Translations under genes and position numbers: made by a program | The notes under the pieces: model-generated | What the model saw: the letters and a program-made list of their open reading frames with translations, nothing else | The model's database searches: none | Told to the model about the DNA's origin: nothing | Shown: one piece after another, positions 17,624 through 21,128 of the stretch | How the letters are laid out: each line of letters opens with the position of its first letter | How positions within the stretch are numbered: position 1 is the stretch's first letter | NCBI GenBank assembly: GCA_036265815.1 | Contig: DATAOI010000062.1 | Location: 1-59,720 of the forward strand | Length of the DNA stretch: 59,720 nt | From: Gemmatimonadales bacterium | GTDB lineage: Bacteria; Gemmatimonadota; Gemmatimonadetes; Gemmatimonadales; GWC2-71-9 | Direction: 5' to 3'

Positions 17624-18745
17624 TCAGGAGGTAGCAGAGTGGGTGATGACCGGCTCCGACTCCGCGGGGACGGTGCCGGACGGTTGTATCTCCTCGACGG
17701 GGTCGCCGTAAACCTCTCCCAGCAGGATGTGCCGGACCAGCACCATCACCAGGGCGAGGATCGGCACGGCCACGACCAGCCCCGCCAACCCGAACAGTTT
17801 CCCGATCAGCAGCACGCCTGCGATGGTGAGCACGGGCGGGATGTTGACCTGTCGCTCCATCACGTAGGGCCCCACGAAATTGGCCTCGATGAGATGGACG
17901 CCCACGCCCACGGCGGCCACCGCGAAGGCCTTGCCAAGGCCGGACACCCCCAGCGCGAACAGCGCCGGCAGCACCGTCGAGAGCAGGGTGCCGAAGAACG
18001 GGACGATCGCCGCCACACCGGCAAAGACTCCGAACGCCAGGAAGTAGGGGACGTCCAGCACCCAGAGACCGAGCGTGGTGAGCAGTCCCAACAGCATCAT
18101 CGCCACCAGCTGGCCGACCACCCAGGCCCGGAGGGTTATCCCCAGATCGAGCAGGATGGCGCGGGTGAGCACCCGGTGTGAGGGGGGCACCAGTGCGATG
18201 ATTCCCTCGGTATAGATCGCAGGAGTGCGAGCGAGATAGACCGCCATCACCAGGACGCTCACCGCCTCGATCAGGATCTCGGCTCCCCCCTTGAGATAGG
18301 GAACGGCCGCGCCGCGCAGAAACCCAAGGATTTCGTTGAGCGCGCTGGCGAAGAGCGAGGTGCTTCCAGCGCTCGGACTTCGTCCCAGCACGGGAATCCC
18401 CCGAATAATCCGGGTGATGCTCTGGTCCAGCTCGGAGAGAAAGGCGGGAAGATTTCCCAGCAGGTCCTGCACCTGCTGGGATACCGCGGGCGCGATGAGC
18501 ACTACCACGCCGGTGAGGGCGCCGAGACTGAGCACGACCCCCACCAGCAGGCCGGCGGTCGGCGGCACGCCGAATCTGCGGTGGAGGTAATCGGCGATGG
18601 CGTTGAGATAGACGGCGAGGATGACCGCCAGAAACAGCACCAGGAGCACGTCGATCGTACGGATCGCCAGCGCCACCAGGGTGGCCGCGAGGATGACCCA
18701 CCCCAGGGGGAACCCTCGCCGTTGGGGGGTTCCTGCCAGCTGCAT
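17624..18745 (-). CDS. AI-2E family transporter (UPF0118)
   Basis: 373-residue integral membrane protein of the AI-2E exporter superfamily (PF01594). It has N-terminal paired helices (WVILAATLVALAIRTIDVLL), a central soluble loop with coiled-coil character (VSQQVQDLLGNLPAFLSELD), and the conserved C-terminal block (FFGTLLSTVLPALFAL, then LIEANFVGPYVMERQVNI). Members include TqsA and Na+/H+ antiporter-like proteins, so the substrate cannot be assigned. The ATG overlaps the pspA stop by one base, tying it to the envelope-stress locus. Confidence 0.88.
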   Translation of the reverse strand: MQLAGTPQRRGFPLGWVILAATLVALAIRTIDVLLVLFLAVILAVYLNAIADYLHRRFGVPPTAGLLVGVVLSLGALTGVVVLIAPAVSQQVQDLLGNLPAFLSELDQSITRIIRGIPVLGRSPSAGSTSLFASALNEILGFLRGAAVPYLKGGAEILIEAVSVLVMAVYLARTPAIYTEGIIALVPPSHRVLTRAILLDLGITLRAWVVGQLVAMMLLGLLTTLGLWVLDVPYFLAFGVFAGVAAIVPFFGTLLSTVLPALFALGVSGLGKAFAVAAVGVGVHLIEANFVGPYVMERQVNIPPVLTIAGVLLIGKLFGLAGLVVAVPILALVMVLVRHILLGEVYGDPVEEIQPSGTVPAESEPVITHSATS

Positions 18746-19518
18746 CAGCGTCCGGTCCCCTCGTCTCCTTCTTCGACCAACTCGGCGTCGTGCACGTCAC
18801 CGGCACCCTTGTTGAGCTGCCGCGTCTGCCCGGCGCCGCCGGCCGGGAGCAGACCCATCTTGGCCTTGAGCTCGAGGAGCTGCTGATCGGAGCTGCCCTT
18901 GTACTCCAGCACCTCGAACTGCCGGGCCAGCCGGTCGCCCGAGACCTCCTCGTTCAGCTCCGCCGAGGCCAGCGCCTTCCGCTCGGTGGCTTCGATCTTT
19001 TCGGCCATCCGCTCAAACGACTCGAAGGCGCTCTTGTCCGACATCCCCGACATGGTCTCCTGGATCCGCTGCTGCGCCTCGGCCCGCTTGGCCCGGGCCA
19101 CCAGGATGTTCTTCTTCCGCTTGGCCTCTTCGATCTTGTCGTTGAGCTGGCGGAGCGACAGCTTGAGCTGGTCGGTTTCCGCCTTGTGCTTGAGCCAGGT
19201 CTCGTGCAGCTGCTGGGCGCCCTGCAGCTGCTCGTTGTAACGCCCCAGCGCCTGCTTGGCCATGTCGTCCCGCCCCTCCTGCACCGCCAGCATGGCCCGG
19301 CGCTCCCAGTCCTCCGCCTGCTTCTTCATGTTCTCCGCGTCCGACTGGAGCTTCTTCTCGTCGGCGATCGCGGAAGCCACCTGCTGCTTGGCCTTGGCCA
19401 GCTGCGTCTTCATGTCGACGATGAGCTGGGTCAGCATCTTCTCCGGGTTTTCGGCCCGCGAGATGAGGTCGTTGATGTTCGACCGGAGCATGGTCGAGAG
19501 ACGGTCAAAGATTCCCAT
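18745..19518 (-). CDS. pspA: PspA/IM30 family envelope-stress protein
   Basis: 257-residue ESCRT-III-like membrane-remodelling protein. It starts MGIFDRLSTMLRSNINDLIS, the amphipathic helix that binds stressed membranes, followed by ENPEKMLTQLIVDM and a long coiled coil (~25-185). The C-terminal tail has LLELKAKMGLLPAG and an acidic end. Length is slightly above E. coli PspA (222). It is followed by an AI-2E permease and preceded, on the same strand, by a YbjN-like gene and three small coiled-coil membrane proteins. No PspF-type regulator or PspC is visible. Confidence 0.93.
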   Translation of the reverse strand: MGIFDRLSTMLRSNINDLISRAENPEKMLTQLIVDMKTQLAKAKQQVASAIADEKKLQSDAENMKKQAEDWERRAMLAVQEGRDDMAKQALGRYNEQLQGAQQLHETWLKHKAETDQLKLSLRQLNDKIEEAKRKKNILVARAKRAEAQQRIQETMSGMSDKSAFESFERMAEKIEATERKALASAELNEEVSGDRLARQFEVLEYKGSSDQQLLELKAKMGLLPAGGAGQTRQLNKGAGDVHDAELVEEGDEGTGR

Positions 19519-19524
19519 GTCGCT

Positions 19525-19920
19525 TCACCTTTCCCGGTAAGGCGCCAGCGTGGCCAGGTGCGAAGCCAGCGCCAGCGTGATCGAGTCGAAGCTCGCCTCG
19601 AACTCGCTGAAATCGAGGTTTTCCAGCTCGAGCGTGTCGGTCAGCACGACATGGTCGCCTTCGACGCCGTAGGACCCGTGCACCAGCTCCCGGGCGTTGT
19701 ACTCCAGCAGCTGGCGGAAGAGCTCCGAGCGCCGCGGGTCACTGGCGGGCAGCTCCATGACCCGGACCCGGAGGACCACCACCGGAGGCGCGTAGTGCAC
19801 CACCACCTCGGCCTCGTCCGGCGTGCGGGCGAGCCAGAGGTTGGGTTCGATCTCCGTGACGGTGAGGGCGCCGCCCTCCAGCCGGTCGAGAAACGATTGA
19901 ATGTCGTCTTTGGTGATCAT
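19525..19920 (-). CDS. YbjN/CesT-like small protein
   Basis: 131-residue soluble protein starting MITKDDIQSFLDRLEGGALT, with the pattern WLARTPDEAEVVVHYAPPVV followed by a C-terminal helix (FEASFDSITLALASHLATL). The alpha-beta layout resembles YbjN or type III secretion chaperone-like folds; this is a fold-level guess. It is six bases upstream of pspA and overlaps the small coiled-coil gene before it by four bases. A role as a PspA partner or chaperone is inference from context. Confidence 0.65.
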   Translation of the reverse strand: MITKDDIQSFLDRLEGGALTVTEIEPNLWLARTPDEAEVVVHYAPPVVVLRVRVMELPASDPRRSELFRQLLEYNARELVHGSYGVEGDHVVLTDTLELENLDFSEFEASFDSITLALASHLATLAPYRER

Positions 19921-20177
19921 CGATGGACTCCCCCCGGGAGCTGGTCGTTCGTTTCCTTCCGCGCGAGGAGCCGCTCGGCGAAATCTAACCGCTCCTCCAC
20001 TTCGGCCAATCGGGTCTTCAACTGGTCGATCTCGCCCAGCAGCTCGGCATCGTGCTCAACCGGCCGCTTCCTGATGCGGTCCGCCAGGGCCGCGCCAACC
20101 GGGCCCTTGCCCAACCTCAGCAGCCCCAGCGCCAGGACGATCAGCGGGATGGCTACTCCAGGTCCGAGATCAACCAT
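19917..20177 (-). CDS. Small TM plus coiled-coil protein, PspB-like (paralogue 1)
   Basis: 86-residue protein with one N-terminal transmembrane helix (PGVAIPLIVLALGLLRL) and a coiled coil ending RLAEVEERLDFAERLLAR (~56-73). It is the third member of a tandem triplet that shares the 'L-x-E-L/V-x-E-R-L/V-D-F-T/A-E-R-L/M-L-A' ending. The topology matches PspB (short TM, cytosolic coiled coil) but I see no direct identity. It overlaps the downstream YbjN-like gene by four bases, so the two are probably coupled. Confidence 0.75.
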   Translation of the reverse strand: MVDLGPGVAIPLIVLALGLLRLGKGPVGAALADRIRKRPVEHDAELLGEIDQLKTRLAEVEERLDFAERLLARKETNDQLPGGVHR

Positions 20178-20219
20178 CGGGTTGCACTCCTCAGCGCTGG
20201 TGCCGGCCGCGCTCCCGGC

Positions 20220-20552
20220 TCACGGTCCATCCCCTCGGTGCAGCTGTCCCGGCGCCTCCGGTGCCCGGGCGAGCATCCGCTCGGTGAAGTCGAGCCGTTC
20301 CTCCAGCTCCGCGAGGCGGCCTTGCAGCGCATCGACCTCGCCCAGCCGCTGATGCAGCTGCTCCACTTCGGCCTTCAGGCTGGCGTCGAGGCTGCCCTTC
20401 CCCTCCAGCCGCCGGGCGAGCGCGCGCATGAGCGGCCAGAGAATGACCGTGACTGCGATGAGGGCGGCGACGACGATCGGGACGATCAGATCGGGATCGA
20501 ACGGCATCTGTGGCATCGGGGGTATCGGCGGTATCGGGGTCTGCGCGATCAT
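20220..20552 (-). CDS. Small TM plus coiled-coil protein, PspB-like (paralogue 2)
   Basis: 110-residue protein with a short Pro/Met-rich N-terminus, a transmembrane helix (LIVPIVVAALIAVTVILWPL), a basic stop-transfer region (RALARRLEGKG) and a coiled coil ending RLAELEERLDFTERMLAR (~80-97). It is paralogous to its two neighbours and overlaps the upstream paralogue by four bases. Function is unknown; envelope-stress sensing with PspA is an inference from gene order and topology. Confidence 0.75.
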   Translation of the reverse strand: MIAQTPIPPIPPMPQMPFDPDLIVPIVVAALIAVTVILWPLMRALARRLEGKGSLDASLKAEVEQLHQRLGEVDALQGRLAELEERLDFTERMLARAPEAPGQLHRGDGP

Positions 20553-20800
20553 CCGGGCTTACCCCCTTCCACCTGGCCGTGCTCCCGTTGGGCCAGCAGT
20601 CGCTCGGTGAAGTCGACCCGCTCCTGGAGCTCGGCGACGTCGTGCCGGAGGGCGTCCACGTCGGCCAGGAGCTGGGGGTCGGCTGACGCTAGCGCCTGTC
20701 CCCGGATGCGCTCGGCCAGCGCCCGACCAACCGGACTGATGGCCAGCAGGAAGAGCGTCGCTCCCCCGAAAATGAAGATGATGGCAAGGATCCCTTCCAT
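20549..20800 (-). CDS. Small TM plus coiled-coil protein, PspB-like (paralogue 3)
   Basis: 83-residue protein with the TM helix at the extreme N-terminus (GILAIIFIFGGATLFLLAIS), a basic segment (GRALAERIRGQALAS) and a coiled coil ending DVAELQERVDFTERLLAQ (~57-74). It is the first gene of the Psp-linked set on the minus strand and is preceded by a 12-bp inverted repeat. The DFTERLLA ending is shared with the next two genes, which points to tandem duplication. Confidence 0.75.
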   Translation of the reverse strand: MEGILAIIFIFGGATLFLLAISPVGRALAERIRGQALASADPQLLADVDALRHDVAELQERVDFTERLLAQREHGQVEGGKPG

Positions 20801-20825
20801 ATCATTACTTCCCCGGTGCCTGTGG

Positions 20826-20882
20826 TCAGGCCCTACGGCGGGGTCGCGGCGGATGTTTCACCACGAAACGCGTAGGGCCTGA
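20826..20882. repeat. 12-bp perfect inverted repeat with nested hairpin
   Basis: TCAGGCCCTACG (20826-20837) and CGTAGGGCCTGA (20871-20882) are perfect inverted copies 33 bases apart. The loop itself holds a second hairpin (GTTTC at 20855-20859 pairing with GAAAC at 20865-20869). It lies between the 71-aa gene and the first coiled-coil gene. No U-tract follows on either strand, so it is not a canonical terminator. It could be a structured leader, an attenuator or a miniature repeat element. Confidence 0.7.
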
Positions 20883-20912
20883 ACAGGACGTCAGAGGGGA
20901 GGCGGTCGTCTA

Positions 20913-21128
20913 CTACACCAGCTCTACCGCCTCGATTGCGCCGAGGGACACGGCAATCTCGGTGTCGTCACTGCCGGTCGGACGCAGGTAGACCTCGTGG
21001 GCCGTGACGTGGGTGTCCACGCTCATCGGAATACCGACAATTTCGGTGCGGTCGGAGGTCATGATGCGGACCACCTGCTCATGGCCGCCCGCGTAACCCA
21101 GCAGGGAGACGATGTCTTCGTACGTCAT
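20913..21128 (-). CDS. Hypothetical protein, 71 aa
   Basis: Not recognised. A small beta-rich protein (MTYEDIVSLLGYAGGHEQVV, then RTEIVGIPMSVD and TEIAVSLGAIEAVELV). The short N-terminal helix followed by about five strands would fit an Sm- or SH3-like small barrel, but that is a guess. It has a plausible Shine-Dalgarno (GGAGG) upstream of the ATG. It is on the same strand as the Psp-like cluster, separated from it by the inverted repeat. Confidence 0.6.
   Translation of the reverse strand: MTYEDIVSLLGYAGGHEQVVRIMTSDRTEIVGIPMSVDTHVTAHEVYLRPTGSDDTEIAVSLGAIEAVELV

What the first reader, a model, noticed from the sequence alone, without database searches (positions are those of the whole stretch)
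17624..21128. PspA locus with three tandem PspB-like paralogues and a YbjN-like partner
Three adjacent small genes encode one TM helix plus a coiled coil ending in a shared (E-R-L/V-D-F-T/A-E-R-L/M-L-A) motif. They feed directly into a YbjN-like gene, pspA and an AI-2E permease with overlapping or nearly touching ends. Topology matches PspB but no PspC, PspF or LiaF-type gene is present. Triplication suggests different sensing partners for one PspA, a possibly undescribed envelope-stress module.
Basis: partly seen in the sequence, partly recalled or inferred. Interest (0 to 1): 0.7.

Follow-up and report, generated by a model that had tools for sequence, protein, structure and literature searches.

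The report
Expandable PspB-like gene array beside pspA
In a family of little-studied Gemmatimonadota bacteria, the membrane-repair gene pspA is preceded by a row of 2 to 11 small, related membrane-protein genes (3 here) that differ in the part lying in the membrane but share one tail motif, which looks like a set of interchangeable membrane sensors or anchors serving one stress protein.

Summary
Three copies is the low end: in the same family the array holds 2-11 copies and abuts CesT-pspA or pspA in 27 of 28 genomes with a readable pspA locus. Deeper relatives have one divergent copy or none. Two of the three paralogues have clear orthologues across the genus with dN/dS well below 1. Paralogue classes keep different TM segments (27% identity between classes) but share the motif (77%). 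PspC is absent from this genome and from 27 of 31 sampled family genomes. Resemblance to PspB is real but below every curated cut-off: PspB-like, not PspB. About half of the motif-bearing proteins lie elsewhere: fused to TM2, beside PadR genes, between bshC and murJ. My reading is variable membrane input with a constant output onto PspA. The link to PspA rests on gene neighbourhood and a suggestive, size-confounded co-absence; no interaction has been tested.

The parts
20549..20800 (-). S1: 83-aa PspB-like protein, TM + coiled coil + C-terminal ELQERVDFTERLLA
   Evidence: TIGR02976 (PspB) 8.7e-7, 29.1 bits, below cut-off 51.7; orthologous first-slot gene at 63-70% identity in 8 close relatives, dN/dS about 0.15-0.33
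20220..20552 (-). S2: 110-aa (or 95-aa from 20507) paralogue, motif ELEERLDFTERMLA
   Evidence: orthologue in all 8 close relatives at 58-71% identity, dN/dS about 0.11-0.35; AlphaFold model one helix 5-81, pLDDT 88.7
19917..20177 (-). S3: 86-aa paralogue, motif EVEERLDFAERLLA; overlaps the CesT-type start by 4 nt
   Evidence: last-slot class shared with 4 relatives, 48-53% identity
19525..19920 (-).
   Evidence: Pfam PF22550 CesT_Tir_1 1e-24; YbjN 0.0034, below cut-off
18745..19518 (-). PspA/IM30, 257 aa, the only copy in the genome
   Evidence: PF04012 6.6e-47; one match in G000
17624..18745 (-). AI-2E/PerM-family permease, 373 aa, overlaps pspA by 1 nt
   Evidence: PF01594 3.4e-48; conserved after pspA in many family and order members
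20913..21128 (-). 71-aa protein with a predicted Hfq/Sm-like fold, conserved upstream neighbour of the array; relation to it unknown
   Evidence: AlphaFold pLDDT 94, Foldseek best matches nearly all Hfq, TM 0.70-0.76, best E 1.9e-3
20823..20885 (.). Inverted repeat (15-nt arms, 93% complementary, 33-nt spacer) between the 71-aa gene and S1

Best explanation
The three genes are one state of an expandable array of PspB-like, single-pass membrane proteins that act as membrane anchors or receptors for PspA. Each has its own TM and juxtamembrane segment (the input: a different lipid state or membrane partner) and the same cytoplasmic coiled-coil tail ending in ELxERxDFxERLLA (the output). Because PspC is missing, the tail most likely docks PspA directly, or through the CesT-type chaperone where that is present, holding it at the membrane until stress lets it polymerise and repair the bilayer. 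Shown here: the array, its copy-number variation, its linkage to pspA, class-specific TM segments, purifying selection on S1 and S2, absence of PspC. Inferred: docking to PspA, sensing, and the release step.
For: Arrays of 2-11 copies directly upstream of (CesT)-pspA in 26 of 28 readable family genomes, one more with a single copy before a contig end. 54 of 79 loci found by an unbiased scan contain pspA, and several more are cut by contig ends at p71 or CesT. Identity between paralogue classes is 27% in TM+juxtamembrane against 77% in the motif; within class 1 it is 83% and 82%. dN/dS about 0.11-0.35 for S1 and S2. Across 121 genomes S-type proteins and pspA co-occur: 103 both, 13 neither, 3 pspA only, 2 S only, Fisher p 6e-13; among genomes of 2.9 Mb or less 12/12 against 1/8, p 1e-4. 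No PspC in this genome and 27 of 31 sampled family genomes. CesT is missing from 20 of 41 family genomes, many of which keep S arrays, so the array does not depend on CesT. S2 is predicted as one continuous helix from TM to tail. Weak, consistent PspB similarity.
Against: No interaction data. 62 of 133 family members in 14 genomes are not in the pspA array, and the dispersed ones seen sit with unrelated genes, so the motif may serve other partners. The co-absence with pspA is partly confounded by small genomes, by phylogeny and by one deep branch, and in families other than f1 the S hits are divergent. In E. coli PspB does not bind PspA directly; PspC does, and the PspB leucine zipper is needed for binding ArcB (PMC3068692).
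Confidence: 0.45

Rival explanations
1. The shared tail is a general coiled-coil docking or oligomerisation module of Gemmatimonadota membrane proteins (like SHOCT elsewhere). It joins these proteins to each other or to various partners such as kinases, MurJ or PadR regulators, and the pspA array is only its largest cluster, without a special bond to PspA.
For: The motif occurs on TM2-domain proteins, beside PadR genes, between bshC and murJ, and in divergent form between a HisKA kinase and a sigma-54 response regulator. About half of family members are outside the array. E. coli PspB uses its zipper for the kinase ArcB (PMC3068692).
Against: The tandem array lies beside pspA in nearly all family genomes; the co-occurrence table with pspA has few exceptions.
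Confidence: 0.3
2. The array is gene-dosage amplification: redundant copies raised for more of one anchor protein, with copy number drifting by recombination.
For: Copy number varies widely, 2-11.
Against: Copies within a genome are divergent and fall into classes whose TM segments are conserved between species; S1 and S2 are under purifying selection.
Confidence: 0.08
3. The small proteins are subunits or regulators of the AI-2E/PerM permease or form a stable membrane scaffold with CesT; PspA is a co-transcribed client rather than the output.
For: AI-2E follows pspA in many loci and CesT is often the immediate neighbour.
Against: Arrays persist where CesT is absent from the genome and at loci where no AI-2E was found after pspA; AI-2E genes are in all 121 genomes including those without S.
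Confidence: 0.12

Closest known systems
PspB of the pspFABC operon (TIGR02976, PF06667)
   Same: Small, one N-terminal TM, cytoplasmic coiled coil ending in a zipper-like helix, next to pspA; shared E-R and L-L pattern in the tail and a Pro-Ile/Val at the end of the TM (sequence inspection).
   Different: Below curated cut-offs in all 121 genomes; many copies; no PspC; C-terminal F-[ATS]-E-R-L-L motif; gene order before, not after, pspA.
CesT/Tir-PspA dyad (Ravi et al. 2024, PMC11237479; E. coli YjfI-YjfJ type)
   Same: CesT-type gene immediately before pspA, as in most of the phylum.
   Different: The operons read in that paper add band-7/flotillin, AAA+, polyamine or YjfL genes; none of the passages read describes a PspB-like array. 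Here the array and an AI-2E permease flank the dyad.
PspB duplicates and PspC-PspB fusions (PMC11237479)
   Same: More than one PspB domain in a psp operon; PspB-type tail fused to another membrane domain.
   Different: Those occur with PspC in pspABC operons; here 2-11 copies without PspC, and tails fused to TM2.
SHOCT-like short C-terminal modules (PMC11237479)
   Same: Short helical tail shared by otherwise unrelated membrane proteins.
   Different: Different motif; neither Pfam nor NCBIfam reported SHOCT among the families listed for S members.

Membership tests
PspB (TIGR02976 / PF06667) | Score above the curated family cut-off | tested here: not met
   S1 29.1 bits vs 51.7, S2 14.8; 0 of 121 genomes over cut-off
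PspB (TIGR02976 / PF06667) | N-terminal TM followed by cytoplasmic coiled-coil helix, about 75-100 aa | tested here: met
   a hydrophobic 17-mer over 1.6 in 111 of 155; one helix 5-81
PspB (TIGR02976 / PF06667) | Profile similarity beyond coiled-coil composition | tested here: inconclusive
   17 of 41 members weakly match TIGR02976; hhalign probability 70%, E 4e-5; true PspB beats 297-300 of 300 heptad-preserving shuffles
PspB (TIGR02976 / PF06667) | Interaction with PspC | tested here: not met
   Binding was not assayed; no PspC exists in this genome to bind
Classical pspFABC system | pspC and a PspF equivalog present | tested here: not met
CesT/Tir-PspA dyad | CesT/Tir-superfamily gene adjacent to pspA | tested here: met
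   PF22550 1e-24, 6 nt from pspA
PspA/IM30 | PF04012 over cut-off | tested here: met
   160.4 bits vs 33.9
Envelope-stress function | Induction or need under membrane stress | not testable with these tools
   no expression or phenotype data

The most novel reading that the evidence does not exclude
Gemmatimonadota run a modular membrane-surveillance system in which many different membrane modules (2-11 tandem single-TM proteins, TM2 proteins, proteins encoded next to PadR regulators) carry one common C-terminal docking motif and so report to, or recruit, a single PspA without PspC.
Probability: 0.25. Interest if true: 0.8.

Novelty: new variant of a known kind. Interest (0 to 1): 0.55.

Why it matters
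How PspA-type ESCRT-III proteins are told where a membrane is damaged is poorly understood outside proteobacteria. A natural series of arrays with 2 to 11 receptors differing in the TM part but sharing one tail would allow input specificity and PspA docking to be dissected by swapping segments. The shared tail on otherwise unrelated membrane proteins gives a concrete, testable docking hypothesis.

Tried and rejected
A search of PDB sequences with the S profile gave only chance-level coiled coils and channel tails. Sigma-70 promoter and terminator scans of the locus gave nothing beyond chance. A search centred on E. coli to collect PspB relatives was not possible; only three PspB sequences could be compared, so the profile comparison is weak. 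No shared neighbour family beyond the S genes themselves emerged for single dispersed copies. The idea of simple recent triplication was rejected. AI-2E as a control family is present in all 121 genomes, so it shows that the pspA-less genomes are not simply missing data but is not a matched control for the co-absence.

Full report
Check of the observation. The three small genes are real and paralogous: pairwise alignment scores lie 12-18 SD above shuffles that keep the composition of each half. They lie in the order S1, S2, S3, CesT-type, pspA, AI-2E on the minus strand, with overlaps of 1-4 nt or gaps of up to 42 nt. The 'YbjN-like' gene is a CesT/Tir-superfamily protein (PF22550 1e-24). pspA is single-copy in the genome. 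The window is the whole of contig C62 of a 4.59-Mb assembly, 99% complete; the closest named relatives are MAGs of Gemmatimonadales.

The array. pspA neighbourhoods were taken from relatives in the phylum. In the same family (f1), of 28 genomes with a readable pspA locus, 26 have at least two S genes directly upstream of pspA or CesT-pspA, one (G120) has one copy before a contig end with five more at another contig end, and one (G103) has none there; counts range from 2 to 11. The single f3 genome with a pspA locus has three. In f6 and f7 the loci read have one divergent copy (tail EEQSFMVQLL or EEQRFMTRLL) before CesT-pspA; in f2, f4 and f5 the CesT-pspA pair (or pspA alone) has none. An independent scan of 84,980 species genomes with the family alignment found 222 relatives; the best 79 loci are all Gemmatimonadota, 54 of them contain pspA and others are cut by contig ends. 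The scan used one motif pattern and kept only the best 80, so absence from other phyla is not shown.

What varies and what does not. In 155 family members the tail is nearly invariant (E63 94%, R64 96%, D66 90%, F67 98%, E69 97%, R70 98%, L72 92%) while the TM half is not. Among eight close relatives S1 has its orthologue in the first slot and S2 has a clear orthologue in every case (58-71% identity, dN/dS about 0.11-0.35); S3 is less well conserved (48-53%) and recognisable in four. TM+juxtamembrane identity is 83/68/42% within classes 1/2/3 and 27% between classes; motif identity is 82/85/97% within and 77% between. This is what distinct inputs with one common output would look like, though other causes of TM divergence are possible. 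AlphaFold gives one helix from residue 5 to 81 for S2.

Partners. CesT is absent from 20 of 41 family genomes, and many of those keep S arrays next to pspA; conversely CesT-pspA exists without adjacent S genes in f2, f4 and f5. So S and CesT associate with pspA independently. PspC is absent from this genome and from 27 of 31 sampled family genomes, of varying completeness. No PspF equivalog reaches its cut-off, though about a dozen sigma-54 activator matches exist.

Dispersed members. This genome has nine family members, three in the array. In 14 family genomes 71 of 133 are in the array (my count). Others include TM2-domain fusions (PF05154), genes beside PadR regulators (PF03551), a gene between bshC and murJ, and, in family f2, divergent relatives between a HisKA kinase and a sigma-54 response regulator. 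The tail is therefore a module used in several contexts.

Co-occurrence. Of 121 genomes, 103 have both pspA (over cut-off) and S-type proteins (E at most 1e-5), 13 neither, 3 only pspA, 2 only S (my tally; Fisher p 6e-13). Among genomes of 2.9 Mb or less the counts are 12 of 12 against 1 of 8 (p 1e-4). Small genomes, phylogeny and one deep family contribute, so this is suggestive only.

Relation to PspB. S1 matches TIGR02976 at 8.7e-7 but 29 against 51.7 bits; 17 of 41 members match weakly; hhalign gives 70% probability against three true PspBs; true PspBs beat nearly all heptad-preserving shuffles. I treat them as probable remote relatives, not members. In E. coli PspB signals through PspC and its zipper is needed for ArcB binding, while PspB-PspA binding was not seen without PspC (PMC3068692), so direct docking of PspA by S tails would be a departure and is the main untested step.

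Novelty. The CesT/Tir-PspA pair, PspB duplicates and PspC-PspB fusions are published, and that survey calls PspB rare outside proteobacteria (PMC11237479). A PspB-like array of up to 11 copies without PspC was not found in the papers searched; neither of the two Psp surveys opened mentions Gemmatimonadota. The open-access library is incomplete, so this is not proof of absence.

Noticed in passing
window 20913-21128 (-): 71-aa protein without Pfam or NCBIfam match, conserved upstream of the array, predicted with high confidence to have an Hfq/Sm-like fold; no Hfq family gene is detected in this genome, so it could be a divergent Sm-type protein.
   Followed up: partly
window 20823-20885: Inverted repeat with 15-nt arms between the 71-aa gene and S1; could be a terminator or a regulatory RNA element.
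   Followed up: no
L255, L258, L266, L268, L272 (family f2): A small TM/coiled-coil protein with tail ERISEGQRFTTKLL near a histidine kinase and/or a response regulator; in L255 and L268 Pfam confirms a HisKA kinase on one side and a sigma-54 type response regulator on the other, a possible three-part signalling unit.
   Followed up: partly
L229, L250, L254, L259, L264: A small TM/coiled-coil protein with an ExxFLQRLL-type tail between the bacillithiol gene bshC and the lipid II flippase gene murJ in several families (both neighbours Pfam-confirmed in L229 and L254).
   Followed up: partly
L230, L233, L235, L238, L242, L243: TM2-type proteins carrying the same C-terminal motif as the array proteins (TM2 Pfam-confirmed in L230, L233, L238, L243).
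   Followed up: partly
L060:4610-6170: Genes resembling the two L-serine dehydratase subunits lie between the 71-aa gene and the S array; similar sequence precedes pspA in several f2 loci (by eye, no family search).
   Followed up: no
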